Source of the DNA: Leifsonia sp. AG29
GTDB lineage: Bacteria > Actinomycetota > Actinomycetes > Actinomycetales > Microbacteriaceae
Length of the DNA stretch: 64,000 nucleotides
Reading direction: 5' to 3'
NCBI RefSeq assembly: GCF_009765225.1
Contig: NZ_VMSF01000001.1
Span: 248,001 to 312,000 of the forward strand
In this document: positions 7,683-40,306 of the stretch, one piece after another
Position numbering within the stretch: position 1 is the stretch's first letter
Layout of the letters: every line of letters starts with the position of its first letter
Position numbers and translations under genes: made by a program
The notes under the pieces: model-generated
Seen by the model: only the letters and a program-made list of their open reading frames with translations
Database searches by the model: none
What the model was told of the DNA's origin: nothing

Positions 7683-7712
7683 CGTGGTCAACGCTCGAGG
7701 GAGGGAGAGGGC

Positions 7713-10055
<2,343 letters not shown>

Positions 10056-23092: not shown

Positions 23093-23383
23093 ATGGGTCA
23101 GATCAGTGTCACGCCGGAAGAGTTGAAGCAGCAGGCTCAGGTCTATACGCGCTCGAAGGACGAGATCGAGCAGGCGATCCAGAAGGTCGACCGGATGAAC
23201 TCGACCATCGCCGAGCAATGGAAGGGCCAGGCCTTCCAGGCCTACCTCGAGCAGTACGGCCAGCTGCAGGAGAGCGTTCGCAAGTTCGAAGACCTGCTGG
23301 TGAACATCAACCAGCAGCTGAACAAGTACGCCGACACCATCGCCGAGCGCGATGCGCAGGATGCGCAGAGCTTCGGCTTCTAG
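23093..23383 (+). CDS. esxA: WXG100 protein, EsxA-like type VII substrate
   Basis: This 96-residue helical-hairpin protein has the W-x-G turn as WKG at residues 43-45 (EQWKGQAFQAYLEQ), flanked by two amphipathic helices. It has no signal peptide. It resembles the EsxA proteins of Firmicutes T7SSb, which are secreted homodimers required for secretion. AGGAGG lies seven bases before the ATG, an unusually strong ribosome site that fits high expression. It is the first gene of the secretion operon, 25 bases ahead of essA. A canonical C-terminal YxxxD/E is not clear; NKYADTIAERD is the nearest match. Confidence 0.92.
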   Translation: MGQISVTPEELKQQAQVYTRSKDEIEQAIQKVDRMNSTIAEQWKGQAFQAYLEQYGQLQESVRKFEDLLVNINQQLNKYADTIAERDAQDAQSFGF

Positions 23384-23407
23384 CCCGGTCTCGACTCCTC
23401 CGATCAG

Positions 23408-23911
23408 ATGCGACCGCGGTCCCGTCTCCGTCTGCACGGCCTCCTCGCCGGGGCGCTCGCCGTCGGTCTGACGGCCGGCGCCCCTGGCACCTCGTGGGCC
23501 GTCGGCGATCCCGACCGAGACGGCGACGGGCGTCTGGTGCTCACTCCGAACGTGCTGGTCAACGAGTCGGCCGGCATCGGAGGCGCAGGCGACTTCCCGG
23601 TCCGAAGCCGACTCTTCATCGATGACGTCGCCGAGCGTGCCGACGCGCGCCGGCAGGCGGCGGCTGCGCGCTTGGACGTCGTCAGCACCTTGACGTTCTC
23701 GCGGCCCCCAACAAGCGGCGGCGAATATCGGGCGCTCAAGGCGCGCCTGTTCGACGGCTACGCCGCCCGATCGCTCTCGGTGCAGCCGGAAGACAGGCGC
23801 GACGGTCCGATTTCCTCCCTCGCGGTGCTCGCGATCTGCGCCCCTCTCGTGGCGCTGACCGGGGCTGCGGCCGGGAGGCTCTGGGCGCGGAGGAGGCGGG
23901 CATCCCCATGA
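23408..23911 (+). CDS. essA: EssA-like type VII secretion membrane protein
   Basis: The 167-residue protein begins with a signal-peptide-like segment (LHGLLAGALAVGLTAGAPGTSWA). A polar extracytoplasmic part follows, containing LTPNVLVNESAGIG and a charged helix. One C-terminal membrane helix (SSLAVLAICAPLVALTGAAAGRL) and a basic RRRRAS end complete it. Topology, size and position between esxA and esaB match EssA, a small membrane component of T7SSb. Sequence similarity is weak by eye, so the assignment leans on synteny. Its stop overlaps the esaB ATG (ATGA). Confidence 0.72.
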   Translation: MRPRSRLRLHGLLAGALAVGLTAGAPGTSWAVGDPDRDGDGRLVLTPNVLVNESAGIGGAGDFPVRSRLFIDDVAERADARRQAAAARLDVVSTLTFSRPPTSGGEYRALKARLFDGYAARSLSVQPEDRRDGPISSLAVLAICAPLVALTGAAAGRLWARRRRASP

Positions 23912-24147
23912 TCGAGGTGACCCTGGTGCTCGACGGGAAAGAGCTCGATCTGCTGGTGCCCGGCCGGACTACCTTCGACCGGCTCCAGCGGTTGATCCGC
24001 GAGGGCTTTGCATCGCGAGACGTGGCTCTGCCCGCCGATTACTCGCTCGCGCTCGCCGACAAAGCTCTCGTCATCAGCGGCGGCGACATCATCGAGTCGT
24101 TCGGTGTGGGGAACGGCGATCGCCTGTACGTCCGAAGGAAGAACTGA
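23908..24147 (+). CDS. esaB: EsaB/YukD-like ubiquitin-fold protein
   Basis: The 79-residue protein has the beta-grasp pattern of YukD/EsaB: MIEVTLVLDGKELDLLVPG, a helix LQRLIREGFASRD, and a C-terminal strand pair ending GDRLYVRRKN. In Firmicutes T7SSb this cytosolic ubiquitin-like protein is needed for secretion and may regulate it; it is not conjugated. It overlaps essA and sits three bases before essB, matching the canonical order. Confidence 0.85.
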   Translation: MIEVTLVLDGKELDLLVPGRTTFDRLQRLIREGFASRDVALPADYSLALADKALVISGGDIIESFGVGNGDRLYVRRKN

Positions 24148-24150
24148 GCA

Positions 24151-25290
24151 ATGCGTACCGAGATGAACGACACCCGGCTCGAGTTCCACGCCGACAAGGG
24201 AGTTCTCCGCGTCGCCATCCCGAAAGGCGGCTATGACGCGGAGTGCCTCGACGTCATCGCTCGCTATGCTGACGCGACCGAGACCGACACGGGCCTGGTG
24301 CTCGCCTACCCGATCCGCGACGAAGAGCTGAGTTTTCGGGAGGCGGTGAGACGCACGACCTCGCGGCTCGATCGTCTGACGCTGGCCCAGAGGCTCGCGG
24401 CGTGCGTCCCGAGCCAGGGCGGGTTCCGTGTGCCGGCGATCCATCCCGACAACATCTACGTCCACGGCGACACCCCGCGGGTGGTGCACTGGGGGCTCGA
24501 GCGCATCCTCGCCCCCGACGCGTTCGACGCCGACCTCGTCCTCCGGTCGCTCAAGGCGATGGTCCTCCAGATCTTCCGTCCCAACCTCGCCTTCGAGCAT
24601 CTTCTCGACGGCGGGAGGGCGCTCAGGGATCCGTTCTCCGCGTCGATCTGGGAGGCCGCCGGTCCCGGAGCGCTCTTGACCTTCCTCGATGAGCAGCTGA
24701 GGGCCGAGCGAGCCGGTGCCGCCGCGACGCGGGTCAGTGTCCCCAAGCGGCGCTACTCCTGGTATCGCGGGCTCGGAGTCACCGGCGTCGCGCTCGGCCT
24801 CGCTGCCGGGGTGTTCGCCTGGCAGGCCGAAAGCCGCAATCGTCTGAGTTCCTCCGTGATCGCGGCCCAGGCGCACTTCGTCGCGAACGACTTCGCGGGC
24901 GCGCTGACAGCGTTGGAGGGATACCAGGCGGGTTCGTTGCCGGCGTCCGCGAAGTACGTGCTTGCGGTGTCGAGCATCCAGCTGGATGACCTCACCACGA
25001 CGCAGAAGCAGGCGATCCTCAACACCATCTCCGCCAAATCAGACGACGTGACGCTGAGCTACTGGATCGCCGTCGGCCGCGGCGAGTTCGAGCAAGCGCT
25101 CGACTTCGCGCAGAACCTCGGCGACGACCAGCTCACCCTGCTGGCCTACACGGATCTGTATCACGCCACCGAGCTCGACACCCGGATGGCCGGAGAGAAG
25201 AAGCAGCAACGCCTCGAGGAGTATGCCAAGGCGATCGACGACCTCACGGCAAAGCTCGCGGGAGCTGGCGGAGGCGAGGCCCCGCGATGA
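24151..25290 (+). CDS. essB: EssB/YukC-like type VII secretion pseudokinase
   Basis: This 379-residue protein has the EssB layout. An N-terminal pseudokinase-like domain (1-195) contains VPAIHPDNIYVHGDTPRVVHW. A single membrane helix (~205-225, LGVTGVALGLAAGVFAW) and a C-terminal extracytoplasmic helical domain follow, the latter with ALTALEGYQAG and YLAYTDLYHATELD-like helices. Canonical kinase catalytic residues are missing, as in all EssB proteins. EssB bridges EssC and other membrane subunits in T7SSb. Its stop overlaps the essC ATG (ATGA). Confidence 0.88.
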   Translation: MRTEMNDTRLEFHADKGVLRVAIPKGGYDAECLDVIARYADATETDTGLVLAYPIRDEELSFREAVRRTTSRLDRLTLAQRLAACVPSQGGFRVPAIHPDNIYVHGDTPRVVHWGLERILAPDAFDADLVLRSLKAMVLQIFRPNLAFEHLLDGGRALRDPFSASIWEAAGPGALLTFLDEQLRAERAGAAATRVSVPKRRYSWYRGLGVTGVALGLAAGVFAWQAESRNRLSSSVIAAQAHFVANDFAGALTALEGYQAGSLPASAKYVLAVSSIQLDDLTTTQKQAILNTISAKSDDVTLSYWIAVGRGEFEQALDFAQNLGDDQLTLLAYTDLYHATELDTRMAGEKKQQRLEEYAKAIDDLTAKLAGAGGGEAPR

Positions 25291-28200
25291 GCGTCTTCGG
25301 TGCAGAGCGGGCAGAGGCGGCCCGGATGGTCGCACTCGACTCCCGACTGGATTCGAGTGAACTCCAGTACCTCGTATACCTGCTGGATGGTGCCCGCGCG
25401 ACCCGGCTCGCGCTCACCCACGAGCGGCCGTTCCTCGAACACGACGGTCACAAGCTCAGCGTGATCAACGGTGAACTGTATGTCGACGGCGACCAGTTCG
25501 TCGATGGTACGAACAGCCGGCGCGGCCTCACCTGGGTGGTGCTCTCCGCGTCCCGCTCCCGCACAGAGTTCTTCACCATCGACCGGGGCGCGGAGTTCGC
25601 GATCGGAGACGTGCCCTTCGCCGACATCAGGACGGCCGACTCCCCGCTCCTCATCCTGAGCGACGGGTCGCTGATCGTCGACGCGCGGGACCAGCGCGTG
25701 TACGTCGACGACCAGGCGGTCATCGGTCGCCAGGTGTTCGCCTTCGCACCGGGGATGGTGGTGCTGACCGAAGGGTTCCTGCTCGAGAGGCGACCCACCC
25801 AGTTCAAGATCACGGAGTTCGGTTCACCGCTCGAGTTCGGCCACGCGAGACTGCTGACCCAGCCTCCGGTGATCGAGTTCCCGCCCGATTTCCCCGACTA
25901 CCGGCGCTCGCCGCGGATGAATCTCGAGGTCGAACCGGACGAGTTCACGTTGCGTGGGCCCGGCGATCCCGCCGCCAAGCCGAAGAACCGAGTCATGCGG
26001 ATGGTGGCGCCACCGCTCGCGATGATCGCGGCGACGGGTGCGACCACGATGATCATGGGGACCAATCCCGTGATGCTGATCGGGATGGGCCTCGCCAGCG
26101 TCCTGACGGCGTCCTTCACAGTGGCGCAGTACCTCACGGATGCGAGAGAGCACCGGGCACGCGCTGCTCGCGCCGATGACGCCTACGTCCAGTACCTGGT
26201 GCAAACCGTCGCTGCCGCCTCCCGGGCGGCGGACTCGGAACGACGGGTCCTGCAGTATCAGCAGCCGAGCCCGCAGCAGCTGGCGGCGCTTGTCGAGAGG
26301 TATGACCGGAGGATCTACGAGCGTCAGCGCTACAACAAGGACTTCCTGACGGTCTCGCTCGGCCTCTCCGATCGGCCCTCGGCCGTGCACGTGTCGTCGG
26401 ACGTAAACGAAATGGACGCCAGGACTCAGGCGCGTGACGTCGTCGAGGTCGCTGCCGCATTCCGTGAACAGCACGAGGTCCCGACACCGATCGGCCTCGC
26501 GGATCAGACCCTGGGCTTGGTGGGGCCACCAGATGCCGTTGCCGAGTGTGTGCAGTCCCTGCTGTTCCAGGCTGCGTTCTTCCACTCGTACCGCGATGTG
26601 AACTTCGTCTCGCTGCTCGCGCGCGGCTCCTACGCCACGACGTGGAACCGCTGGAGGCTGCTACCTCACTTCACCCTCCAAGAACTCAACCTGCGAGGTC
26701 TGATCCATACGGAGAGGCATCGCGACGTGGTCTTGAACAGCTTCTACCAGCTCCTCCAGAAGCGTCGGCATCAGTGGAGGGAAGCCGGAGCGCAGAAGCC
26801 GCAGTTCGCCCCCCACTACGTCTTCACGATCGCTGAGGACCGTCTCCTCGCCGGTCACGGGATCAATGAACTCCTCGCCGAAGACATGAGCCACCTCGGT
26901 GTCACGGTGATCTGGTGCAGCGAAGACGCGAAGCTTCTGCCGGAGACGGTGACCGCCCTCATCCAGGCGCCGAATCAGGTTCGAGGCGAACTCGTCACCG
27001 ACGACGGCGTCTACGTCGCGACCCCGTTCACCCCCTACGTGCTGCCCACCGACCTTGAGCGTTCCCTTCGGAGGCTGTCGAACCTGAACCACGTCGAGGT
27101 CGAGAAGAACGCCGTGCCGGAGTCGCTCAGCCTCCTCGAGCAGTACGGAGTCAGAACCGTCGAAGAGCTCGCGATCGCCGACCGGTGGAGGCGTGCCGAG
27201 CCCAACAAGTCGATCGCGTCGTTGATCGGGTGGCGCGGCAAAGGCGATCGGGTGCATTGGGATCTGCACGAACGCGCGCACGGGCCGCACGCCCTTGTCG
27301 GAGGCACGACCGGGTCCGGCAAGTCGGAGTTCCTGACCACCTACCTCATCGGGCTCGCGATCGAGTTCTCACCCGAAGACATCGGGATGCTGATCATCGA
27401 CTGGAAGGGCGGTGGCATCGCGAACACACTCGACCGGCTGCCGCACTTCATGGGCGCCATCACGAACCTCGACGGCGCCGGCACGGCGCGGGCGCTCGCG
27501 AGCATCAAGGCCGAGCTGAACAAGCGGCAGCGCGAGTTCGCCGTGTACGGCGTGAACAGCATCAACGCGTACATGACGTTGTACAAGCAGCGGCACGACC
27601 CCAAGCCGGGCGTCACGTACCCGACGAAACCGCTCCCGCACCTGATCCTCGTGTCCGACGAGTTCGCGGAACTGAAGGCGAACGTCCCCGAGTTCCTCGA
27701 CGAGCTCACCTCGGTCGCGCGGATCGGCCGGAGCCTCGGTGTCCACCTCATCCTGGCCACCCAGAAACCCAGCGGTGTCGTCAACGACCAGATCGAAGCG
27801 AACTCCACGTCGAAGATCGCACTGAAGATGGCGAGCGAGCAGGACTCGAACGAGCTGCTGAAGACCACAGACGCCGCGCACATCACGAACCCGGGGCGCG
27901 GATACCTCAAGGTCGGCCACAACGCGGTGTACGAGCTCTTCCAGAGCGGTTATGCGGGAGTGCCCTACGACCCCGACGCGGTGGTGAACGAACGGGTCGA
28001 CGAGCGCATCTACACGATCAACGAGGTAGGCCAGTACGAGCTGTTCCACGACCCCGACGAGGAGGTCGAGCAGGGGAGGGACACGAGCGACCTTCCCTCC
28101 CAGCTGGACGCGGTCATCGACGTCATCGTGCGCGCCTTCGCGGCCGACGGGACGCTCACGACACCGGACAAGCCGTGGCTTCCGAACCTCCCGGTGCGCA

Positions 28201-29735
28201 TCCCCGTTCCCGAGTCGCGCCCGGGGAGCGGGGTGGCCGTGCCGCTGGGCATGCTCGACATCCCCTCGCGCCAAACGCAGGAGGAGCACAGATTCGACCT
28301 CTCCCGGCACGGGCACACCGCGGTGTTCGGCAGCCCCGGCTCCGGCAAGTCCACGGTGTTGCAGACGCTCGTCGTGAGCCTCGCGACGGTCTGCACGCCC
28401 GAACGCCTCCACATCAACCTCATCGATTTCGGCAACAACGGCCTCCTGCCCGTTAGGGAGCTTCCGCACGTCACGGACATCGTCACCCTGGAGGAGGCCG
28501 AGAAGCTCGGGAAGATGCTTGGCGTCATCGCCGACCTGATCGCCGCCCGGAAGCAGCTGTTCAGGGAGGCGGGCGTCACGAACCTCGAGCAGTACCGGGC
28601 GAAGACGGGCAGCGATCTGCCGATCGTGCTCACCGTTCTCGACGGCTACGACAACCTCACGGTGAACGACCGACGGAAGGATGCCATCGACTCGCTCCTG
28701 GTGCAGGTGCTCCGCGAGGGTGCGGCATCGGGCGTCTTCCTGGTCTTCAGCGCCAGTCGCGTCGGCGCGGTCCGCGCCACGATGCTGAGCAACATCTCGA
28801 CGAAACTGTGTCTGTACCTCAACGACGAGAGCGACCTCTCGCAACTGATGGGGCGCGAGAGGCTGCTGCAGGCCGACATCCCGGGTCGGGGCCAGCTGCT
28901 CGCCGACGGGCCGACCGCGATCCAGTTCTACCTCCCCGCACCCGGAGAGGACGGCTCCGAGACCCTCGCGGCGCTCGAGCGCCAGGTCACCGCACTCAAC
29001 ACCGGCTGGACGGGCGCGCGTCCGAGCAGGATCCCGATGGTGCCTTCCGAGCTCTCCACGGATGCTCTCGAAGGTGCAGCGAGCTGGCCGAATGCCCTGT
29101 CTTTCGGCCTCAACAAATCGAGCGCGTCGCCCGAAGTCTTCGAACTGTTTCGCGGAGATACCCTGGCGATCTTCCCCGCAAACCCGAGGCAGGCGGCTCT
29201 CCTGCATCCATTCTTGGCCGGTCAGATCCCGGATGCGGTTGCCGGTACAGATCTCGTGGTCATCGACGCGAACGGTGCGGTGGAGTCGATTCTGGCGCCT
29301 GCAGCGTCGCTCTACATCGGAAAGTCGTTCCTTCGGAGCCATCCGAGCGAAGTGAAGGCGGCGCTGACCAGGCTCTCGGAGAGCGGGACGGAGACCCGTC
29401 GGTGTCTGGTGATCAACGGTATGGTCGACGCCTTTGACAAGGTGATGCTCCCGCCGGAGCAGATCGGGGAACTTCTCGGCGCGGGCAGTCCGGACCTCCA
29501 AGTGATCGTCCTGGATCACATGTCCAAGGTGGAGGGGGCCTTCGGGCTTCTTAGCGTGGTCAAGGAGAACGTCGCCCAGATCCTCTTCGGAGGCGACTTG
29601 AGCTCGCAACGCCTGCTCGGCGGCCTGCCGCTTTCCGTGAAGCAGGAGGCGCACGCCAAGAACGTCCTGCATTCGTGGAAGGACGAGGAGCTCAGCCACA
29701 TCGTCGTACCGACCGCGAGCGAAAGCGAGGAATGA
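25287..29735 (+). CDS. essC: EssC-type FtsK/SpoIIIE secretion ATPase
   Basis: The 1482-residue motor has N-terminal FHA-like beta domains (~55-210) and two membrane helices (~236-285, containing ATTMIMGTNPVMLIGMG). Tandem FtsK/SpoIIIE ATPase domains follow. Domain 1 has Walker A GGTTGSGKSEF (~672) and Walker B LILVSDEFAEL (~788). Domain 2 has Walker A GSPGSGKSTVL (~1014) and a weaker Walker B (LTVLDGYDNL). A third C-terminal domain (~1240-1460) lacks a P-loop. Length and domain order match EssC, with FHA and ATPases in one chain, unlike the split EccCa/EccCb of mycobacteria. It powers secretion and selects substrates. Confidence 0.95.
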   Translation: MSVFGAERAEAARMVALDSRLDSSELQYLVYLLDGARATRLALTHERPFLEHDGHKLSVINGELYVDGDQFVDGTNSRRGLTWVVLSASRSRTEFFTIDRGAEFAIGDVPFADIRTADSPLLILSDGSLIVDARDQRVYVDDQAVIGRQVFAFAPGMVVLTEGFLLERRPTQFKITEFGSPLEFGHARLLTQPPVIEFPPDFPDYRRSPRMNLEVEPDEFTLRGPGDPAAKPKNRVMRMVAPPLAMIAATGATTMIMGTNPVMLIGMGLASVLTASFTVAQYLTDAREHRARAARADDAYVQYLVQTVAAASRAADSERRVLQYQQPSPQQLAALVERYDRRIYERQRYNKDFLTVSLGLSDRPSAVHVSSDVNEMDARTQARDVVEVAAAFREQHEVPTPIGLADQTLGLVGPPDAVAECVQSLLFQAAFFHSYRDVNFVSLLARGSYATTWNRWRLLPHFTLQELNLRGLIHTERHRDVVLNSFYQLLQKRRHQWREAGAQKPQFAPHYVFTIAEDRLLAGHGINELLAEDMSHLGVTVIWCSEDAKLLPETVTALIQAPNQVRGELVTDDGVYVATPFTPYVLPTDLERSLRRLSNLNHVEVEKNAVPESLSLLEQYGVRTVEELAIADRWRRAEPNKSIASLIGWRGKGDRVHWDLHERAHGPHALVGGTTGSGKSEFLTTYLIGLAIEFSPEDIGMLIIDWKGGGIANTLDRLPHFMGAITNLDGAGTARALASIKAELNKRQREFAVYGVNSINAYMTLYKQRHDPKPGVTYPTKPLPHLILVSDEFAELKANVPEFLDELTSVARIGRSLGVHLILATQKPSGVVNDQIEANSTSKIALKMASEQDSNELLKTTDAAHITNPGRGYLKVGHNAVYELFQSGYAGVPYDPDAVVNERVDERIYTINEVGQYELFHDPDEEVEQGRDTSDLPSQLDAVIDVIVRAFAADGTLTTPDKPWLPNLPVRIPVPESRPGSGVAVPLGMLDIPSRQTQEEHRFDLSRHGHTAVFGSPGSGKSTVLQTLVVSLATVCTPERLHINLIDFGNNGLLPVRELPHVTDIVTLEEAEKLGKMLGVIADLIAARKQLFREAGVTNLEQYRAKTGSDLPIVLTVLDGYDNLTVNDRRKDAIDSLLVQVLREGAASGVFLVFSASRVGAVRATMLSNISTKLCLYLNDESDLSQLMGRERLLQADIPGRGQLLADGPTAIQFYLPAPGEDGSETLAALERQVTALNTGWTGARPSRIPMVPSELSTDALEGAASWPNALSFGLNKSSASPEVFELFRGDTLAIFPANPRQAALLHPFLAGQIPDAVAGTDLVVIDANGAVESILAPAASLYIGKSFLRSHPSEVKAALTRLSESGTETRRCLVINGMVDAFDKVMLPPEQIGELLGAGSPDLQVIVLDHMSKVEGAFGLLSVVKENVAQILFGGDLSSQRLLGGLPLSVKQEAHAKNVLHSWKDEELSHIVVPTASESEE

Positions 29736-29765
29736 CTGTTGGCGTTGAAGCTCCGAGGAGAACTT

Positions 29766-30194
29766 ATGGGCTTGGGCTCGATCGTGCGGCTTGAGACGGC
29801 GGAGGTCTCCGGCCTGTTCGTCGTCGTCGCGCGCGGGGCGTTCCGGCCGGACACGGAACGTGACGATGTGGTGCCTCGCTATCTGGTGGCGCCGCATCCC
29901 TACGGCGAGGCGCCGGATCAGGAGACCTTCCCGATCCTCGCCGACGCAATCGAGGAGGTCGTCTTCGAGGGTTACACGAACGCCGCAGATGCTGCCTTCC
30001 TCGACGACCTTCTGGACCAGATGCAGAACGGCCGACGTGCGACGAAGCCCGCGCGACGTTTCGCCGGGGCGCTCACCGCCATCCCGGAGACGCCGGATGG
30101 CGTCAACAACGATGCCACTGCGGAGGTCGCGAGGGATCCCTTCATTGCGCTTCGACGACTGGCCGACCAGGAAGATCGGAGGAAGAGACCGTGA
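29766..30194 (+). CDS. DUF4176-family T7SS-associated protein
   Basis: The 142-residue protein has the DUF4176 core. It opens MGLGSIVRLETAEVSGLFVV, then YLVAPHPYGEAP (equivalent of the YxGxxYPEG segment) and IEEVVFEGYTNAADAAFL. DUF4176 genes sit beside LXG toxins in Firmicutes T7SSb loci; their function is not established. The ATG at 29766 is chosen over an upstream TTG because GAGGAG ends five bases before it. The C-terminal ~55 residues are a variable charged extension. GTGA overlap with the next gene. Confidence 0.8.
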   Translation: MGLGSIVRLETAEVSGLFVVVARGAFRPDTERDDVVPRYLVAPHPYGEAPDQETFPILADAIEEVVFEGYTNAADAAFLDDLLDQMQNGRRATKPARRFAGALTAIPETPDGVNNDATAEVARDPFIALRRLADQEDRRKRP

Positions 30195-30460
30195 AGGTTT
30201 CGTCGAATCTCAGTGCTGCACAGGATGCTGTGGCGGGTTTCACGAAGGTCGAGGTAGCTCCAGAAGTCCAGCCGGCCACTCTCGGGTCGAGCAACGTCTC
30301 GAGCATGAAAGACGGGACTCTCGTTGCGAACTCGCTCATGGACTGCATCGCTGAGCTGGCGTCGGCGGTCAAGCGACAAGCCTCCAAGATCACCGCTCTC
30401 GCGACTGAGGTCGGGGCACGCGATGACCGGGACGCCTCGGCCTGGGGTGAAGCGCGATGA
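30191..30460 (+). CDS. Small helical LXG partner (TIGR04197/DUF3130-like)
   Basis: This 89-residue protein starts at a GTG overlapping the previous stop. It is predicted to be two helices: VSSNLSAAQDAVAGF and NSLMDCIAELASAVKRQASK. Size, WXG100-like make-up without a WxG turn, and position match the TIGR04197/DUF3130 proteins (Lap1 type). In Streptococcus and Enterococcus these bind the LXG domain and act as targeting partners for secretion. The family call rests on position and pattern. ATGA overlap joins it to the next gene. Confidence 0.7.
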   Translation: MKVSSNLSAAQDAVAGFTKVEVAPEVQPATLGSSNVSSMKDGTLVANSLMDCIAELASAVKRQASKITALATEVGARDDRDASAWGEAR

Positions 30461-30813
30461 ACGCTGGTCCGTCAACGCGCAATGACGACATCAAGCAAGA
30501 AATCCCGGCGTGCGAGAGCCGCACTGCAGACCAGATCGCAACGCTCCGTCTCCTAGAGCAAGAGTGGGAACGGTATCGGGAGGTCATGCGACTTGATGCT
30601 GCGCGCTATGAGGAGGCCGGACACGCGATCGGCGAGAAGGACTATGGCGTGGCCAGGGGGCTGGCGGCGCGAAGAGAAGTCGACGCGTACGTGAGGCAGC
30701 TTGCAAACGAACTGGAAGAGCTGGTGGACGAGGGGGCGCGCCAAATGCGCGCGGAGGCCGAGACGGAACGGGAACGGCTGCGTGGGGGGAGAGCGGGTGA
30801 ATCGTGGGACTGA
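30457..30813 (+). CDS. Second helical LXG partner (DUF3958-like)
   Basis: The 118-residue, strongly charged protein is almost wholly helical and coiled-coil-like: QIATLRLLEQEWERYREVM, YVRQLANELEELVDEGARQ, MRAEAETERERLRGG. It lies between the TIGR04197-like gene and the LXG toxin. DUF3958 (Lap2-type) chaperone/targeting proteins are found there in Firmicutes. Its 3' end overlaps the toxin start by 10 bases in another frame, so all three products are probably made together. Assignment is mainly contextual. Confidence 0.68.
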   Translation: MNAGPSTRNDDIKQEIPACESRTADQIATLRLLEQEWERYREVMRLDAARYEEAGHAIGEKDYGVARGLAARREVDAYVRQLANELEELVDEGARQMRAEAETERERLRGGRAGESWD

Positions 30814-32039
30814 TTTACGATCCCGGAGATTCGAGCAGCATTACGGCCGCTTTGTCAGCCAATCTCGCCGCCGCCGAGTCGGTGCTCGATGCGGTGCAGA
30901 GTGCGACGAGCCGCCTGAGAGCCGCGCTGGGCACGGGAGAGCTCTCAGGCAGGGGTTATGCCGCCGTCCAATCGCTGTTCGCGCAGGTCATTGCACCGTG
31001 TGTCGCAGATGCGAAGGCCGAACTCGGAGCCATCCGGGATGACCTGGAGAGGTACTCGTACCAAGACTCGAAGATTCGTGCTTTCGGAGTTCTGAAAGAG
31101 GACGAGCTCAAGAAGCAGCTCGAAGCAACCAGGCGCCAGCGGGACGCGACCGAGCACCTGATCGAGGTCAATACTGCTGCCTCGAATTCCTTGACAGCGG
31201 TACCGGCGCTGTCCGAAGCGCTGCGAGTAAAGAACACTCAGCTGGAAATGGTGCTGAACCAGCTGGAGAACGACATCCGCGATCTGGAAGGCAAGCTGAC
31301 CGCGCTCCAACAGTTCGATTCGGCTTCGAAGGGTCTCTTCATGGACCGGCTGGACAACCTTGCCGCGGCGACCGGCGACACGGTCGCGCTGCTGAACCAG
31401 CTCGACGACACCAAGATCGGGCTCAGCGTCGTCGGCAGTCTCGGCACCGGAGCCGGGACGCTCGCTACCAGGCGGGACATTCTCAATTACCTGGGCGACA
31501 AGAAGATCACGAAGGATGCAACGGGTCGGCTCCGGTGGGGTGATCGATATCTCTACCGGCCGGAGGCCAGCGGGCAGAAAGCATTTCTCTATGCGCGCGG
31601 CAAGCAGTTCAACCAATCCACCGAGGTCCGGATCGACCACTATCGGCAGCCGATCAAGGCCGGCGTGCGCGGCCTCGCTGCGCCCCTCGATGACTTTCAC
31701 GGCTGGTCGAGCGCCTCCGCTCTTGGCAAGCTCGGCAAAGGACTCGGCGCAGCCGGCGCCGTCCTCACCGTCGCCGGTAATGCCGACACCTACTTCCGAG
31801 ACGGCGTTCAAGCCACAGACTGGCCAGACTTCGCAGTCGATACCGGTGTCGACCTCGCGCACGCAGCCGTGTCCGCCGGTATCGGAGCAGCAGCCGGCTC
31901 GTTCTTCTTGCCTCCGCTCGGCACCGTCGTTGGAGCCGCAGTCGGGTTGATCGCGGGCGCTGTGATTGATGCTCCGGCGTGGAACGGGATCTCGCCGACG
32001 GATGCCGCCAAAGAAACAATCAAGAAGATCTACAGGTAA
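30804..32039 (+). CDS. LXG-type toxin with glycine-zipper membrane-active tip
   Basis: The 411-residue protein has a long helical N-terminus (1-~205) as in LXG domains, with LTAALSANLAAAESVLDAV-like heptads and long coiled coils to KLTALQQFD. A linker region and a short C-terminal tip follow. Residues ~300-390 hold a hydrophobic LGKGLGAAGAVLTVAG and the glycine-zipper GIGAAAGSFFLPPLGTVVG...AAVGLIAGAV. No nuclease or NADase motif is present. Glycine-zipper LXG proteins such as TelE of Streptococcus gallolyticus form membrane pores, so a pore-forming antibacterial effector is inferred. The start is GTG. The immunity candidate begins five bases after the stop. Confidence 0.78.
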   Translation: MGLIYDPGDSSSITAALSANLAAAESVLDAVQSATSRLRAALGTGELSGRGYAAVQSLFAQVIAPCVADAKAELGAIRDDLERYSYQDSKIRAFGVLKEDELKKQLEATRRQRDATEHLIEVNTAASNSLTAVPALSEALRVKNTQLEMVLNQLENDIRDLEGKLTALQQFDSASKGLFMDRLDNLAAATGDTVALLNQLDDTKIGLSVVGSLGTGAGTLATRRDILNYLGDKKITKDATGRLRWGDRYLYRPEASGQKAFLYARGKQFNQSTEVRIDHYRQPIKAGVRGLAAPLDDFHGWSSASALGKLGKGLGAAGAVLTVAGNADTYFRDGVQATDWPDFAVDTGVDLAHAAVSAGIGAAAGSFFLPPLGTVVGAAVGLIAGAVIDAPAWNGISPTDAAKETIKKIYR

Positions 32040-32044
32040 ACAAA

Positions 32045-32893
32045 ATGGGCCAGAAATCCGTCGAGGACGCGAACCGCACATACTTTCAGGCTTTGGCCAC
32101 AAGTCGGGCATCGCTAGGACAGCTCCCGACTCTGGCGATCCTCATATTGGCGCTTCTGGGTGCTTTGAGCTACTTCTTCAACGCACCGAGTGCAGCTCAA
32201 GGCCACCAGGTACTGTGGCTCGTCCGCGACGTCAACATGATCCTCATCGGGATGAGCGCAGTTGTCTTGTTGATATCCGTATTCAGGAGACTGCTCTACC
32301 GGTTCCAGGCAATGTTCTCGACCGTTATGGCAGTCGCCGCGCTCGGGCTGGTTTACAGCGTGTGTCTGCTCCCACTTCCCTTGGTGACTTTCGTCGAAAC
32401 CCAAGGGGAGAGAGAGTATCGCTCAGACATATTCGTCATTTTTGTTATAGCGGCTTCGGCGATCCTGGTTGGCGCAATCGTGGTTCACGCGCTGATGTTG
32501 AGGCATCGGTTGCGGGTAGGGCATTCGGAGGAGCGCACGATTGGCAACTTCGTGGCCGTGTCCCGATCGAACAGGTCGAAGATCGTGTGGATCACTTTCG
32601 GTCTGGTGGCGGTAGTACCGAACGTGCTGACGTCGGGTCAGTACCTGGCGAACTCCCTTGGGGCGATCGGGCTCATCTTCTTCGCGTGTGTGACGCCGAG
32701 TCTTCCGGTGGAGTTCGCGTATCTTGCCTATCTCAAGTCCAAGGATCGCGCCTACTGGGAGGCCCGACCTCCGCGGCTTCCGAAGGATGAGCGTCGCAGG
32801 TTGGCCAGGAAGACCGCGATGTGGGTGTTCGGGATCGCGGTCGCCCTTGCGCTGTTCTGGGTCTTCGCCAAGAACTTCTCTGCGGGTGTTTAG
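32045..32893 (+). CDS. Polytopic membrane protein, candidate immunity protein 1
   Basis: This 282-residue protein has about seven hydrophobic helices, including ILILALLGALSYFF, MILIGMSAVVLLISVF, VMAVAALGLVYSVCLLPLPL and a last MWVFGIAVALALFWVFA. A membrane location fits protection from a pore-forming toxin. It sits directly after the toxin gene, as T7SSb immunity genes do. A second copy follows at 33191. The two share a near-identical C-terminal half but clearly different N-terminal halves. No known immunity family is recognised. The ribosome site is poor, suggesting coupling to the toxin gene. Confidence 0.72.
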   Translation: MGQKSVEDANRTYFQALATSRASLGQLPTLAILILALLGALSYFFNAPSAAQGHQVLWLVRDVNMILIGMSAVVLLISVFRRLLYRFQAMFSTVMAVAALGLVYSVCLLPLPLVTFVETQGEREYRSDIFVIFVIAASAILVGAIVVHALMLRHRLRVGHSEERTIGNFVAVSRSNRSKIVWITFGLVAVVPNVLTSGQYLANSLGAIGLIFFACVTPSLPVEFAYLAYLKSKDRAYWEARPPRLPKDERRRLARKTAMWVFGIAVALALFWVFAKNFSAGV

Positions 32894-32901
32894 CAATGGA
32901 G
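32478..32901 (+). repeat. Near-identical 424-base repeat, copy 1
   Basis: This block covers the second half of immunity gene 1 plus the bases GCAATGGAG after its stop. It matches 33636-34059 with a constant offset of 1158 bases and only about ten scattered substitutions. Similarity drops sharply on both sides. Downstream of copy 1 the sequence switches to the orphan toxin tip, while after copy 2 it continues into the DUF5085 gene. Confidence 0.9.
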
Positions 32902-33194
32902 CGATCTCGGTACTGCACGCACCGTCCTCGCGCATCGTGGACACCTACTTCCGCGACGGCGTGCAGGAGAACGACATCCAGGATTTTGCGGTGGGCACCG
33001 GCGTCGACCTCGCGAGCGCAGCAGCGTCGACCGGCGTAGGGGCAGCGTTCGGCTCACTCTTCCTGCCGCCACTCGGCACCGTTGTGGGAGCGGGCGTCGG
33101 ATTGCTTGTGGGTGTTGCGCTGAATTTTCCGTGGATCGAGGGCGACTCCCCGACGGGGCTCGCAAAACAAGTCATCAGGAAGGCATATCGGTGA
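32902..33194 (+). pseudogene. Orphan toxin C-terminal module (duplicated LXG tip)
   Basis: From DTYFRDGVQ to the final YR, this frame matches the last 84 residues of the LXG toxin at about 55 positions by eye, including the whole FLPPLGTVVG zipper core. It lacks any LXG domain. Possible starts are GTG at 32937 or, inside the preceding gene, GTG at 32886; neither has a ribosome site. It looks like a displaced, silent toxin tip that recombination could join to the LXG gene, as known for orphan modules in polymorphic toxin systems. It is followed, with GTGA overlap, by its own immunity paralogue. Confidence 0.75.
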
Positions 33195-34051
33195 CCGCAA
33201 AGGCGATGAACAGTGCATCTGTTCGGGATGCGAATCGCATCTATTTTCAGGCTCTGGCCAACTCTCGGGCCTCCCTGGGCAACCTCTCGGTGCTTCCAGT
33301 TCTCATCATGTTTCTGGTCGGCATCGTCACCTTCGGACTGAGTCTGCTGAGCGCAGACGAAGGTCGTGAAGTCTTGTCATTTGTTCGTGATGTCAATGTG
33401 GTCATCATCGCAATAAGTGCGCTGTTCATGGCGCTTTCGGTATTCAGAAAGCTGCTCTACAAGTTCCAAGTCTTCTTCTCGGTCGCCTTGGCGGGCATGG
33501 CACTAGGCCTCGTATACGGCGTGTGTTTGCTCACCGTCCCGCTGGTGGCATTCGTCAACGTGCCCGACAAGAGAGTCTCGACAGTGTTGTTCGCCGTTAC
33601 CGGCTCCGTCGGTCTCGGCGTCGTGGCCGCGGCGGTCGTGGTTCACGCGCTGATGTTGAGGCATCGGTTGCGGGTAGGGCATTCGGAGGAGCGCACGATT
33701 GGCAACTTCGTGGCCGTGTCCCGGTCGAACAGGTCGAAGATCGTGTGGATCACTTTCGGTCTGGTGGCGGTAGTGCCGAACGTGCTGACCTCGGGCCAGT
33801 ACCTGGCGAACTCCCTTGGGGCGCTGGGGCTCATCTTCTTCGCGTGCGTAACGCCGAGTCTTCCGGTGGAGTTCGCGTATCTTGCCTATCTCAAGTCCAA
33901 GGATCGCGCCTATTGGGAGGCCCGACCTCCGCGGCTTCCGAAGGATGAGCGTCGCAGGTTGGCCAGGAAGACCGCGATGTGGGTGTTCGGGATCGCGGTC
34001 GCCCTTGCGCTGTTCTGGGTCTTCGCCAAGAACTTCTCTGCAGGTGTTTAG
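33191..34051 (+). CDS. Polytopic membrane protein, candidate immunity protein 2
   Basis: The 286-residue paralogue of the protein at 32045 has the same seven-helix layout. The N-terminal half aligns (SVRDANRIYFQALANSRASLG) but differs in its helices (VLPVLIMFLVGIVTFGLSL). The C-terminal ~140 residues are almost identical. I start it at GTG 33191, which overlaps the orphan-tip stop and has GGAAGG eight bases upstream. Its pairing with the orphan tip suggests it is the cognate immunity partner. The divergent N-half probably sets specificity; this is inferred from the pattern of conservation. Confidence 0.72.
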   Translation: MTAKAMNSASVRDANRIYFQALANSRASLGNLSVLPVLIMFLVGIVTFGLSLLSADEGREVLSFVRDVNVVIIAISALFMALSVFRKLLYKFQVFFSVALAGMALGLVYGVCLLTVPLVAFVNVPDKRVSTVLFAVTGSVGLGVVAAAVVVHALMLRHRLRVGHSEERTIGNFVAVSRSNRSKIVWITFGLVAVVPNVLTSGQYLANSLGALGLIFFACVTPSLPVEFAYLAYLKSKDRAYWEARPPRLPKDERRRLARKTAMWVFGIAVALALFWVFAKNFSAGV

Positions 34052-34059
34052 CAATGGAG
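33636..34059 (+). repeat. Near-identical 424-base repeat, copy 2
   Basis: Partner of 32478-32901. It ends inside the first codons of the DUF5085 gene (ATG at 34054). Copy 1 therefore carries a stub of that start codon (ATGGAG at 32896), showing that the duplicated unit ran from a toxin tip through to the beginning of the downstream gene. Confidence 0.9.
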
Positions 34060-34521
34060 AGGGAAGCAACGTCGCGCTTGAAGCTGAGGCGTCGCACGCT
34101 GAGTTTGCACAATGTGGTCAGTTTGACCCTCAACCTCCAAGACGCCGACCAGCTGCTCGAGATCATTGACGGAACGGTCGACGAATTCCGACGCGCGCTG
34201 GTCCGGAACGGCTATTACGTGACAGGGCCAACGGTGTTTCGCGCCCTACCCGATTCACGGGACTTCACGCTCATGACCACCCTGGGCAATCGGATGAACC
34301 TGGTGGGGGCCCACGGCACCGGCTTCGAGTTCAATGAGCGACTCACTCTCGACACCGACTACTTCTACCGGCACGTGGACATCGATGAGCCGGTGCCCTA
34401 CGACGACATCGAGAGGATGCTGCAGGAAGCCGGATTGACAGTGCAGACGATTTACCATGTGATCCTCGACGTCTATGGCGAGACCATGCTCGATCTGTAC
34501 ATCGAAGCGGTCGAGCGGTGA
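34054..34521 (+). CDS. DUF5085-like T7SS-associated protein 1
   Basis: The 155-residue protein shows SLHNVVSLTLNLQDADQLLE, FRRALVRNGYYVTGPTVF, a loop with DTDYFYRHVDIDEP and a final ILDVYGETMLDLYIEAV. The pattern parallels the next protein, and both match DUF5085, a GyrI-like fold family found at the end of LXG operons in Bacillus. Function unknown. The start ATG is two bases after the immunity-2 stop and lies within the duplicated segment. GTGA overlap joins it to the second DUF5085 gene. Confidence 0.72.
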   Translation: MEREATSRLKLRRRTLSLHNVVSLTLNLQDADQLLEIIDGTVDEFRRALVRNGYYVTGPTVFRALPDSRDFTLMTTLGNRMNLVGAHGTGFEFNERLTLDTDYFYRHVDIDEPVPYDDIERMLQEAGLTVQTIYHVILDVYGETMLDLYIEAVER

Positions 34522-34979
34522 CGGAGAACACCTGGCAGCTCGCGGCGTTCGGCAAGAGGCTGGCCTACCAAAACGTCCTGAGTTCCCGTGCGACGTTCCA
34601 TTACAGCGAGCTCGGTGAACGGTTCGGAGAGTTTACCTCCGCCATCACGCAGAACGGATACGACCCGAAGGGACCCCTCTTCTACAGCCTCAACAACGTT
34701 CCGTTGGACGAGATGGTCGACATTGAGATGTTCCTCCCGATTCGTCAAGACTCCGTCCAACCCGAAGAAGGGCTCCTCTTCCACTCGTACTTCGACGTCT
34801 CGCCACTGCTCAGCGGCATGGTCACCGGCGACTTCGAGGTTCAGGCCGAACACGTCTACGCGCAACTCTTGGCGACCTTGGACGTGAACGGACTGCAGCA
34901 GAACACCCCCTTCTATCATCTGGTCCGCAACGACATCGCGCCTTACGTCTCCGTTCTAGTCGGGTACTCGAAGCGCTGA
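34518..34979 (+). CDS. DUF5085-like T7SS-associated protein 2
   Basis: This 153-residue protein has the clearest DUF5085 features: QNVLSSRATFHYSELGE, ITQNGYDPKGPLFYSLNNVP, VDIEMFLPIRQD, LLFHSYFDVSPLLS, and a final TPFYHLVRND. These proteins accompany LXG toxins in Firmicutes and may be accessory or chaperone-like; nothing is proven. It is the last gene of the plus-strand operon, starting at GTG in overlap with its paralogue. A 65-base gap separates it from the convergent esaA. Confidence 0.82.
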   Translation: MTENTWQLAAFGKRLAYQNVLSSRATFHYSELGERFGEFTSAITQNGYDPKGPLFYSLNNVPLDEMVDIEMFLPIRQDSVQPEEGLLFHSYFDVSPLLSGMVTGDFEVQAEHVYAQLLATLDVNGLQQNTPFYHLVRNDIAPYVSVLVGYSKR

Positions 34980-35044
34980 GTGTCGCAGCGGAGCGCTAGG
35001 TCTGCCAAGCCTCAAGCGGTGTGAACCTGCCCGAGCACGCCGCC

Positions 35045-36994
35045 TCAGGCGCCCCTGCGGGTGCGGAAGGTCCGCGCCAGCACCATGACGAGCGCACCGG
35101 ACAGCAGCCCGGTGGCGAAGACGATCAGCCACGCAGGGTCGAAAGAGGCCGGGCCGACGACGCGGGCCGGCGTGATGTCTTTCGCAGCGATGGGGGCCGA
35201 GAAGAAGTCCTGGATCTTGCCGAGATCGGCACCCGGTGTCCTGGCATTCGCCAGCACCGTCGAGAAGTTGCGGTAGAACTGCTCGTTCTTCCTCAGGCCG
35301 GTGTTCCCGTTCGTCAGCAGCTCAGCGACCCCGGCCCGGATCCTCGAAGCGTCGCTGTAGGTGACATCGGCGCCTCGCAGCAGCGCGTCGAATTGAGCGA
35401 GATTGTCCGGCACGGCCGTTGCGCTGCCCGCGATCCTGCTGCTCGTGTCTGCGGATTGCGTCACCAGGTCGGCGAGGTTCCGGTGCAACTCGTCACTGGT
35501 GTCGATATAGAGGTTCGGGTCGTCGGGTCGGAAGCTCTCCCAGTCTTTGATCTCGAGACTCCGGACCGCGCTTGCGTAGAAGTTCGCGCCCCTGAGGGCA
35601 GCGACGACGTCGGCGAACCCGGTGTCCACGCTCGCCAACGCGGAATCGAATTGCGGAGCAGTTGGCGCGTCGAACGGTAAGGAACCCCGAACCTTCTTGA
35701 GCGCCTTGATGTCCGCCTTCAGCGTCTGCAGCACAGCAGGATCCACGAGCGGGGTAGCAGGCTCGGAGGGACCGCCCGAGCCTTCGGTACCGCTCGGATA
35801 CGCGAGGGGCTTCAAGACCGCTGCAAGCCCTTCGAGGTTCGCGATCCTGGTCGCGAGGTCATCACGAAGTGCGGTGGCGTTCGCGTCCAGGGCGTCGACG
35901 GCGGCGGAGTGCTCGGCGGAGTAGAGGGCCATCGCTTGTCGCAGCGATCCGAGTGCGGTGGCCAGACTCGGTGGCACGGTTCCCTCGGGGGTCAGGCAGG
36001 CCTCCGGGTCGTCGTTCACACCGACCCCATCGAGCGCGCACAGGGTCGTGTTCCTCAAGCCGTCGAACTGCATCCCGTAGAAGGTGCGATCCGAGACGGC
36101 CTGACCGGCGATGCCCGAGTTGCTGTTCGTCACGTTGAGGCGTGCGATCTCCTGCTGGCGGAGCGCGTACGCGTCGAGAAGAGGCAGCTGATCGCGAAAA
36201 GCGCCACTGGTTGCGGTGAGCGTGCTGGTGACCGACTCGGTGAAGGCGTTCCGCGCCTCGACGGTCGCCGCGTCGATGCCCTTCAGTGCTGTGGCGCTCG
36301 CCACAAATGCCTCGAAATTCGGGATCGTCCTCGAGAAGGGCTCATCCACGTCCGACGACAAAGCGGTGATCAGTGCTCCCTGGTTGCCCAGCGCTGCGTT
36401 CATCTGGCCGTCGGCCTGTGCGATGTTGCCAGCGACCGACGCGTAGTACATCGTCACGACACTCTTGTTGAACCCCTGCACGATGCCGGTGACCTTGCTC
36501 GTCAGCAGCCGGTCCGAGGGCTCGTCGGCCTGACGCCGCACCTTGAACTCGACGGTCGCCCTCGTCGGGTCGACCTCCTGGAGGGTCAGGAGGTCGCGTG
36601 AGAACGACTGCGGAATGTAGATCACGGCGTCGAGAGAGGCGTCTTTGTAGGCCTTCTCGGCGACCGGCCGCGAGAGCACCGACCAGTTGTACTCCGTGTC
36701 CTTCGAGACTCGGTCGACGAAGTTCGCGCCGAAGGTGTACGAGGTGCCGTTGAAGTCGGCCGCGAGGTCCTCGTTGACGAGAGCGATTCGGGGCGCGGAG
36801 AGCGGGCCGCTCCGAGACAGTTCGCCGTTCACGGCAAGGAAGCCGAGGGCCAGCACGGTGACCAGCAGGATCGCGGACGCCGAGCGCGCGAGCTTCGTCG
36901 CGCGCGTCGCGCGGGTCGTGCCACTCCTGCGCTCCGTGCCACTCCTGCGCTCCGTGCCGTTCCTGCGCTTCGTGCCCCGAAACAGGCGTGCCAT
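35045..36994 (-). CDS. esaA: EsaA-like type VII secretion membrane protein (short form)
   Basis: The 649-residue protein has one N-terminal membrane helix (~38-56, ASAILLVTVLALGFLAVNG). The typical PRIALVNEDLAADFNGTSYTFG of the EsaA/YhgE-Pip group follows, then AVIYIPQSFSRDLL, a long extracytoplasmic helical part and one C-terminal helix (WLIVFATGLLSGALVMVLA). Firmicutes EsaA has about six membrane helices and ~1000 residues, so this is a short, two-helix version. EsaA is a core T7SSb subunit and in streptococci forms the extracellular arrow-like dimer. It is convergent to the rest of the locus and so separately regulated. Confidence 0.78.
   Translation of the reverse strand: MARLFRGTKRRNGTERRSGTERRSGTTRATRATKLARSASAILLVTVLALGFLAVNGELSRSGPLSAPRIALVNEDLAADFNGTSYTFGANFVDRVSKDTEYNWSVLSRPVAEKAYKDASLDAVIYIPQSFSRDLLTLQEVDPTRATVEFKVRRQADEPSDRLLTSKVTGIVQGFNKSVVTMYYASVAGNIAQADGQMNAALGNQGALITALSSDVDEPFSRTIPNFEAFVASATALKGIDAATVEARNAFTESVTSTLTATSGAFRDQLPLLDAYALRQQEIARLNVTNSNSGIAGQAVSDRTFYGMQFDGLRNTTLCALDGVGVNDDPEACLTPEGTVPPSLATALGSLRQAMALYSAEHSAAVDALDANATALRDDLATRIANLEGLAAVLKPLAYPSGTEGSGGPSEPATPLVDPAVLQTLKADIKALKKVRGSLPFDAPTAPQFDSALASVDTGFADVVAALRGANFYASAVRSLEIKDWESFRPDDPNLYIDTSDELHRNLADLVTQSADTSSRIAGSATAVPDNLAQFDALLRGADVTYSDASRIRAGVAELLTNGNTGLRKNEQFYRNFSTVLANARTPGADLGKIQDFFSAPIAAKDITPARVVGPASFDPAWLIVFATGLLSGALVMVLARTFRTRRGA
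36918..36971 (-). repeat. Three in-frame 18-base repeats at the esaA 5' end
   Basis: The unit GTGCCACTCCTGCGCTCC occurs at 36918-36935 and 36936-36953, with a diverged third copy at 36954-36971. It encodes the hexapeptide ERRSGT in the basic cytoplasmic N-terminus of EsaA. Copy-number change would alter tail length without shifting the frame. Confidence 0.8.
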
Positions 36995-37153
36995 GATGAA
37001 TCCCCCCGGTCGCCAAGCCTTGAGTGATCATTCTAGAACATCAGTCGGTTGCCGGTGGGATGCCCAGCCTCGCGTGGGCCGCGGAGCCGATGCGGGACGC
37101 TTGCTGCGCCTCCCGGGCCCGCCGTACCATGAGGTGTCTGAATGAGAACGCCT

Positions 37154-37170
37154 TGTTCTGATATCGAACA
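37154..37170. promoter_or_regulatory. Palindrome upstream of the FAD monooxygenase
   Basis: TGTTCTGATATCGAACA has perfect TGTTC/GAACA arms around TGATATC. It lies 29 bases before the monooxygenase start in the 204-base gap after esaA, and is a candidate operator for control by aromatic substrates, for example by the GntR protein at 41911. The rest of that gap shows no gene. Confidence 0.4.
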
Positions 37171-37198
37171 GCAACCGCACGATGAAGTGAGGTCCCCC

Positions 37199-39088: not shown

Positions 39089-39105
39089 GACCGCGCCAAG
39101 CGGCC

Positions 39106-40239
39106 CTACACCTGCGCGCCGAGCTTGAACCCGCGCGGCTGCTCCTCCTTGCGGGTGTACGAGAACCCGTCGGCGCCGATGGTGACCTCCATCTCGGAGT
39201 CGTCGGTGCGCGTGGTGAGCGGTTGCGGGTTGCCGTCGAGGTCGAGGACGGTCGAGGCCTCGGTGTACCAGGAGGGGACGACCGGGTTGCCCCACCAGTC
39301 GCGGCGCTGGTTGTCGTGCACATCCCACGTGACGACGGGGTTGTCCGGGTCGCCGGTGTAGTAGTCCTGCGTGTAGATCTCGATGCGGTGGCCGTCTGGG
39401 TCGCGCAGGTAGAGGTAGAACGCGTTCGAGACGCCGTGGCGCCCGGGCCCGCGCTCGATGCAGTCGGAGCGACGGAGCGCGCCGAGCTTGTCGCAGATGG
39501 CGATGATGTTGTGCTTCTCGTGCGTGGCGAAGGCGATGTGGTGCATGCGCGGCCCGTCGCCTCCGGTCATGGCGGTGTCGTGGACGGTCGGCTTGCGGCG
39601 CATCCACGCGGCATACGTCGTGCCGGCTTCGTCCTGGATGTCCTCCGTGACGCGGAAGCCGAGGTCCTCCATGTACTTCACGGCACGCGGCACGTCAGGC
39701 GTCACCTGGTTGAAGTGGTCGAGGCGTACCAGGGCGCCCGGCGTGTACAGGTCGTAGCGCCAGGCGAGGCGCTCGACGTGCTGCACGTCGTAGAAGAACT
39801 CGTACGGGAAGCCGAGCGGGTCCTCCACGCGGACGGAGTCGCCGATGCCCTTCGTGAAGCCGGAGGCGCGGCGTTCGACCCGGCAGCCCAGCTCGGTGTA
39901 GAACGCGACGGCTCGGTCGAGGTCCTCGGGTGTCCGGACCCGGTACGAGAAGGCCGCGACCGCGGGCGCCGGGCCTTTGCGCAGCACGAGGTTGTGGTGG
40001 ATGAACTCCTCGAACGAGCGCAGGTAGACCGCGTTCTCGTCCTCCTCGGTCACCACCAGCCCAAGGACGTCCACATAGAACTCGCGGCTCGCGGCCAAGT
40101 CGGTGACGACCAGCTCCATGGAGGCGCAGCGCACGATGTCGGGCGGTGTCGCCTTCGGGGTCGGAATGGGATCGGTCGGCGCCGGGATCGGGTCGCTGTC
40201 GGTCACGGTGGGCTCCGGGGAGTCGGGGGTGATGGTCAT
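39106..40239 (-). CDS. hpaD: Homoprotocatechuate 2,3-dioxygenase (HpaD, VOC type)
   Basis: The 377-residue type I extradiol dioxygenase has two VOC modules. The metal ligands of the Brevibacterium fuscum enzyme are recognisable: His in RLDHFNQVTPDV, His in RMHHIAFATHEKHN and Glu in HRIEIYTQDYYTGDPDNP. It cleaves homoprotocatechuate to 5-carboxymethyl-2-hydroxymuconate semialdehyde. The first ~45 residues are a Pro/Thr-rich extension. ATG at 40239 follows GGAAGCTCACC. It is the last gene of the minus-strand operon. Confidence 0.93.
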   Translation of the reverse strand: MTITPDSPEPTVTDSDPIPAPTDPIPTPKATPPDIVRCASMELVVTDLAASREFYVDVLGLVVTEEDENAVYLRSFEEFIHHNLVLRKGPAPAVAAFSYRVRTPEDLDRAVAFYTELGCRVERRASGFTKGIGDSVRVEDPLGFPYEFFYDVQHVERLAWRYDLYTPGALVRLDHFNQVTPDVPRAVKYMEDLGFRVTEDIQDEAGTTYAAWMRRKPTVHDTAMTGGDGPRMHHIAFATHEKHNIIAICDKLGALRRSDCIERGPGRHGVSNAFYLYLRDPDGHRIEIYTQDYYTGDPDNPVVTWDVHDNQRRDWWGNPVVPSWYTEASTVLDLDGNPQPLTTRTDDSEMEVTIGADGFSYTRKEEQPRGFKLGAQV

Positions 40240-40306
40240 GGTGAGCTTCCTCTTCGTCGAGTGGTCTGCGGGCGTGGCGGCGATCCGCCGCCGTGTCACT
40301 GCCGGG

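What the first reader, a model, noticed from the sequence alone, without database searches (positions are those of the whole stretch)
31680..32039. LXG toxin tip is a glycine zipper, suggesting a pore-forming effector
The tip has no enzyme motif but two hydrophobic Gly/Ala-rich segments, LGKGLGAAGAVLTVAG and GIGAAAGSFF...GTVVGAAVGLIAGAV. TelE of Streptococcus gallolyticus is an LXG toxin with such a zipper that permeabilises membranes. The polytopic neighbours are suited to block a pore in the membrane.
Basis: partly seen in the sequence, partly recalled or inferred. Interest (0 to 1): 0.65.

Follow-up and report, generated by a model that had tools for sequence, protein, structure and literature searches.

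The report
Glycine-zipper LXG toxin in an actinobacterium
This actinobacterium carries a secreted antibacterial toxin whose tail looks built to make ion-leaking holes in a rival's membrane, together with the matching self-protection genes; it belongs to a toxin type so far described only in Bacillota such as Streptococcus and Staphylococcus.

Summary
The tip (residues 293-411 of the LXG protein at 30804-32039) has no enzyme domain and carries a hydrophobic hairpin with a glycine ladder, G361/G365/G373/G377/G381. These five are invariant in ten tips, one from Enterococcus faecalis, with the spacing of the TelE zipper. Gene order (toxin, polytopic, A, B) is conserved in six genomes of the genus and in E. 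faecalis. A second, LXG-less tip (32937-33194) has its own polytopic gene. Between two relatives the LXG, Lap and DUF5085 genes are 86-97% identical, while tip (65%) and polytopic N-half (33%) were exchanged together. So the polytopic protein is best read as allele-specific membrane immunity, the DUF5085 pair as a constant cytoplasmic guard. It is a new TelE/EsxX-type member, unusual for lying in a T7SSb of Actinomycetota (Leifsonia-related; EssB in 1 of 396 phylum genomes). Pore formation is inferred, not shown.

The parts
30804..32039 (+). LXG toxin, 411 aa (GTG start overlapping the upstream Lap gene)
   Evidence: full-length relatives in 7 other genomes of the genus
30804..31403 (+). LXG delivery domain, residues 1-200, shared with two other effectors of the same genome
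   Evidence: Pfam LXG 8/8 family members; Foldseek to TelA-LXG 8gmh_A prob 0.99; 64% and 53% identity to LXG2/LXG3
31680..32039 (+). toxin tip, residues 293-411
31731..31778 (+). first Gly/Ala-rich hydrophobic segment, residues 310-325
   Evidence: read from translation; partly conserved in A3
31854..31970 (+). hydrophobic helical hairpin with glycine zipper, residues 351-389; PP turn at 370-371
   Evidence: invariant G361, G365, G373, G377, G381 in 10 tips
32045..32893 (+). polytopic protein 1 (about 7 hydrophobic spans), putative membrane immunity for the toxin
32937..33194 (+). orphan second tip, 85 residues from a GTG, no LXG domain, 65% identical to the toxin tip
33191..34051 (+). polytopic protein 2, putative membrane immunity for the orphan tip; start overlaps the orphan tip's stop
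   Evidence: first 480 bases 53-68% and the rest 95-99% DNA identity to polytopic 1
34054..34521 (+). ExiA-like protein, divergent DUF5085 relative (no Pfam hit)
   Evidence: hhalign to the DUF5085 partner P 2.2e-4 over 119 columns; 41% to E. faecalis gene in the same position
34518..34979 (+). DUF5085 protein, TipE/ExiB family: putative cytoplasmic zipper-binding immunity
   Evidence: PF16895 E 9.3e-22, 78.4 bits, cut-off 30
30191..30460 (+). small Lap-like protein 1, 89 aa
   Evidence: position and conservation in 7 relatives; no family hit
30457..30813 (+). small Lap-like protein 2, 118 aa
   Evidence: position and conservation in 7 relatives; no family hit
29739..30194 (+). DUF4176 protein
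   Evidence: PF13780 E 1.7e-7 over cut-off
25287..29735 (+). EssC ATPase, T7SSb type
   Evidence: TIGR03928 1267 bits, cut-off 778
24151..25290 (+). EssB pseudokinase
   Evidence: TIGR03926 240 bits, cut-off 230; PF10140
23908..24147 (+). YukD/EsaB
   Evidence: PF08817 over cut-off
23408..23911 (+). EssA-like candidate: signal-peptide-like start and C-terminal span, no family hit
   Evidence: position and hydrophobic segments only
23093..23383 (+). EsxA, WXG100 protein
   Evidence: PF06013 E 7e-18
35045..36994 (-). EsaA
   Evidence: TIGR03929 127.5 bits, cut-off 122

Best explanation
The gene encodes an LXG effector of a T7SSb of the TelE/EsxX kind. In the producer, Lap-like proteins bind the LXG domain and the ExiA/ExiB-like DUF5085 pair masks the zipper hairpin; export by EssC strips the masks; at a competitor's surface the hairpin inserts into the cytoplasmic membrane and oligomerises through its glycine face, depolarising the cell. 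Kin survive because a polytopic membrane protein, specific to the allele of the tip, neutralises toxin arriving from outside. Shown here: the domain architecture, invariant zipper with TelE spacing, DUF5085 gene, conserved operon, and the joint exchange of tip and polytopic N-half. Inferred: secretion, insertion, depolarisation, and the division of labour between the two kinds of immunity protein.
For: Zipper invariants in 10 tips with the spacing of TelE glycines 458/466/470/474/478 (PMC10434224). DUF5085 E 9e-22; DUF5085 found in 6 of 28 genus genomes, all 6 among the 8 with this toxin, Fisher p 7e-5, and in 1 of 396 phylum genomes. Same order toxin-polytopic-A-B in six genomes, in E. faecalis LR962653.1 with tip 46-56%, polytopic 29-31%, A 41%, B 40% identity, and as published for telE and esxX. 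LXG domain shared with two other effectors with unrelated hydrolase tips. T7SSb core next door. Cassette exchange G799 against G801: LXG 95%, Lap1 97%, A 97%, B 88%, tip 65%, polytopic N-half 33%; the duplication in this genome shows a similar boundary inside the polytopic gene.
Against: No functional assay. AlphaFold gave no usable model for the tip or the A protein. The A protein has no Pfam hit. One relative (G791, L048) carries toxin and polytopic gene without any DUF5085 gene, though it sits as a displaced module; G803 ends at a contig break. The zipper signal from the single sequence is weak. Tip-polytopic co-variation rests on six genomes (Mantel r 0.72, p 0.006; tip with the A protein also r 0.58, p 0.025).
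Confidence: 0.85

Rival explanations
1. The hydrophobic hairpin only helps entry or anchoring, and the toxic activity is an unrecognised enzyme in residues 203-300.
For: The middle region aligns between genomes, and part of it matches the E. faecalis LXG ORF.
Against: It is the least conserved part of the protein (48% mean identity against 60-65%); no enzyme family hit; the orphan tip keeps only the hairpin part together with a polytopic gene; ExiB is known to bind the zipper itself.
Confidence: 0.07
2. Same toxin, but the DUF5085 pair is the allele-specific immunity and the polytopic proteins do something else, for example assist secretion.
For: In TelE only TipE protected E. coli and the six-pass neighbour did not.
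Against: In G799/G801 the DUF5085 genes stayed 88-97% identical while tip and polytopic gene were replaced together; polytopic 2 accompanies the orphan tip without further DUF5085 genes; ExiCD protect from outside.
Confidence: 0.12
3. The locus is decayed or silent: a degenerate effector without function.
For: The orphan tip lacks an LXG domain and a strong start codon; no expression data.
Against: Intact frames and dN well below dS for tip, orphan tip, polytopic, A and B genes (dN 0.19-0.34 against dS 0.87-1.33).
Confidence: 0.04

Closest known systems
TelE-TipE, Streptococcus gallolyticus (PMC10434224)
   Same: LXG toxin with C-terminal glycine zipper of the same spacing; six-pass membrane protein immediately downstream, TipE (DUF5085) third; N-terminally truncated orphan copies also occur.
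   Different: Bacillota. In TelE the polytopic neighbour alone did not protect E. coli; here the polytopic gene is exchanged together with the tip. The TelE sequence itself was not aligned here.
EsxX-ExiAB-ExiCD, Staphylococcus aureus ST398 (PMC12744356)
   Same: LXG toxin with zipper, two small Lap genes upstream, two DUF5085 partners for cytoplasmic immunity, polytopic genes for immunity from outside.
   Different: ExiC and ExiD are two different families (DUF5079, DUF5080); here one polytopic family without any hit to them, in one copy in relatives and two paralogous copies in this genome.
Enterococcus faecalis module, LR962653.1 57451-65577 (L063)
   Same: Same module gene for gene; closest relative found outside the genus.
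   Different: The LXG part and the tip are separate ORFs there, divided by an in-frame stop.
TspA-TsaI, S. aureus (as described in PMC12744356)
   Same: Membrane-depolarising T7SSb toxin with a membrane-bound immunity protein.
   Different: Shorter zipper, toxic only from outside; a single immunity protein suffices.

Membership tests
TelE/EsxX-type glycine-zipper LXG toxin | N-terminal LXG domain | tested here: met
   Pfam LXG in 8 of 8 family members, best 2.7e-7 (this member alone 0.05, below cut-off); Foldseek to TelA-LXG prob 0.99, E 0.06
TelE/EsxX-type glycine-zipper LXG toxin | C-terminal extended glycine zipper, spacing as in TelE | tested here: met
TelE/EsxX-type glycine-zipper LXG toxin | DUF5085 immunity gene downstream, second DUF5085-type gene before it | tested here: met
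   PF16895 E 9e-22; the first gene only by profile comparison P 2.2e-4
TelE/EsxX-type glycine-zipper LXG toxin | polytopic membrane protein immediately downstream | tested here: met
   about 7 hydrophobic spans; no DUF5079/DUF5080 hit
TelE/EsxX-type glycine-zipper LXG toxin | membrane depolarisation or permeabilisation | not testable with these tools
   needs expression
TelE/EsxX-type glycine-zipper LXG toxin | sequence similarity of the tip to TelE or EsxX themselves | not tested
   those sequences were not fetched; link made through the E. faecalis tip, glycine spacing and partner genes
T7SSb | EsxA, YukD, EssB, EssC, EsaA | tested here: met
   curated cut-offs passed for EssB, EssC, EsaA, YukD, WXG100
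T7SSb | EssA | tested here: inconclusive
   23408-23911 has the right place and topology, no family hit
Colicin pore-forming domain (PF01024) | score above the curated cut-off | tested here: not met
   18.0 bits against 23.4; at most an analogous hydrophobic hairpin

The most novel reading that the evidence does not exclude
A two-layer immunity design in an actinobacterial T7SSb: a constant DUF5085 guard that recognises the invariant zipper of any tip allele, and a variable polytopic protein that moves with the tip as one recombining cassette. The guard would let new tip-immunity cassettes (such as the orphan one here) be swapped onto the LXG core without self-killing.
Probability: 0.5. Interest if true: 0.65.

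Novelty: new member of a known kind. Interest (0 to 1): 0.5.

Why it matters
T7SSb is described as Bacillota-specific (PMC11217815); here half of the sampled genomes of one actinobacterial genus carry it, several with a TelE/EsxX-type toxin and its whole immunity set. The natural allele swaps make a testable prediction about which immunity protein carries specificity, a question on which the TelE and EsxX studies give different pictures.

Tried and rejected
Colicin membership: sub-threshold. Enzyme tip: no family hit in Pfam or NCBIfam. Structure of the tip: AlphaFold with a shallow alignment gave pLDDT below 50 from residue 192 on; the fold of the A protein from a single sequence was unusable, so it was not searched further. 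Relatives from the fetch from genomes were not handed to the structure tool because its rule does not list them. Pattern scans with the tip in GTDB and viral contigs found nothing, with DUF5085 in viral contigs nothing; plasmid searches with the whole toxin or the tip found nothing, although DUF5085 led to the E. faecalis record. PDB sequence search gave no meaningful relative of the DUF5085 protein or toxin. A centre in Bacillota for the genome search was not possible.

Full report
Observation. Shuffling shows that its Gly/Ala content alone makes some zipper motifs likely (p 0.11 for zippers, 0.047 for GxxxG), so the motif by itself would not convince. Conservation does: in ten tips at 42-75% identity, G361, G365, G373, G377 and G381, the small residues next to them and a PP turn are invariant, and most residues between vary only within hydrophobic or small ones; charged residues are almost absent. 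The spacing 365/373/377/381/385 is that of TelE glycines 458/466/470/474/478, of which 466, 470 and 474 are key for toxicity (PMC10434224); shuffles reach it in 0.06% (hairpin) or 0.3% (tip).

Delivery domain. Pfam LXG is below cut-off for this protein but all eight full-length family members hit it, best 2.7e-7. The model of residues 1-202 is a long helical bundle matching TelA-LXG (8gmh, prob 0.99; Foldseek E only 0.06). Two other proteins of the genome share this domain (64%, 53%) but end in Abhydrolase_8 hydrolase domains followed by tandem lipoprotein genes: polymorphic-toxin architecture.

Machinery. The window holds EsxA, YukD, EssB, EssC and EsaA, all over curated cut-offs, and an EssA-like candidate. 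EssB occurs in 14 of 28 genomes of the genus, in 2 of 85 sampled genera of the family and in 1 of 396 genomes of the phylum, this one. The genus includes Leifsonia sp. Root227 and CL147: match coordinates of G792 and G802 equal those of L008 and L009; the species of the window itself is not named. The literature held here places T7SSb in Bacillota only and T7SSd as the other actinobacterial type (PMC11217815).

Immunity genes. 34518-34979 is DUF5085 (E 9e-22), the family of TipE and ExiB. TipE neutralises TelE; ExiA-ExiB form a heterodimer whose ExiB groove binds the EsxX zipper. The gene before it, 34054-34521, has no Pfam hit but aligns with the DUF5085 profile (P 2.2e-4) and holds the ExiA position. 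Within the genus DUF5085 occurs in six genomes, all with this toxin. A tblastn search with the DUF5085 protein reached an E. faecalis record with the same module in the same order, tip included; polytopic, A and B genes hit only this plasmid type (two records) among 72,556 plasmids. The tip (46-56%) is far better conserved across phyla than the LXG domain (23%).

Orphan cassette and allele exchange. 32937-33194 is a second tip (65%) without LXG, followed by a second polytopic gene. The two polytopic genes are 53-68% identical in the first 480 bases and 95-99% after that, a recombination boundary. A comparable mosaic appears between genomes G799 and G801: DNA identity is 82-99% through essC, the Laps and most of the LXG domain, 75-78% just after, 47-68% from about residue 260 of the toxin to about two thirds of the polytopic gene, and 87-99% again through A and B. 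dS follows the same course (tip 1.45, LXG 0.42, A 0.13, Lap1 0.03), so this is exchange of a cassette, not only fast evolution. Across six genomes tip and polytopic N-half distances correlate (r 0.72, p 0.006) while the polytopic N-half does not follow the A gene (r 0.14, p 0.24). Interpretation: the polytopic protein carries allele specificity; the DUF5085 pair is generic. This fits EsxX, where ExiAB neutralise cytoplasmic and ExiCD extracellular toxin.

Verdict. A TelE/EsxX-type membrane-active LXG toxin; the mechanism (insertion, depolarisation) is inferred by family, not shown. New member of a known kind, in an unexpected phylum, with an informative natural experiment on immunity specificity.

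Noticed in passing
window 23093-36994: A T7SSb core in an actinobacterium; EssB found in 14 of 28 genomes of the genus, in one further genus (g382: G1016, G1055, G1117) and otherwise not in the sampled family or phylum.
   Followed up: partly
L005 7121-9103 (-) and L006 about 7609-9483 (+): Two further LXG effectors of the same genome with Abhydrolase_8 tips, followed by two and three tandem lipoprotein genes that look like immunity genes.
   Followed up: partly
L048 (G791:C1:763000-778000): Displaced toxin module: a C-terminal fragment of essC, DUF4176, Laps, toxin and polytopic gene, without DUF5085 genes, beside another LXG-like protein. Suggests that effector modules are swapped at the 3' end of essC.
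   Followed up: partly
L063 1008-2564: In the E. faecalis relative the LXG ORF and the tip ORF lie in one frame divided by a stop codon; whether this is a broken toxin or a natural split is open.
   Followed up: no
L009 10001-12510: Leifsonia sp. CL147 LXG protein with a different tip followed by three tandem small paralogous genes, a further putative toxin-immunity set.
   Followed up: no
window 32894-32901 and 34052-34059: The bases after both polytopic stop codons begin alike (CAATGGAG, which holds the start of the A gene), so the orphan cassette seems inserted just after the original start of 34054-34521.
   Followed up: partly
window 37142-40299: Downstream of esaA lie a flavin monooxygenase-like gene (+) and a glyoxalase/dioxygenase-like gene (-), judged by eye from the translations; apparently unrelated aromatic catabolism.
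   Followed up: no
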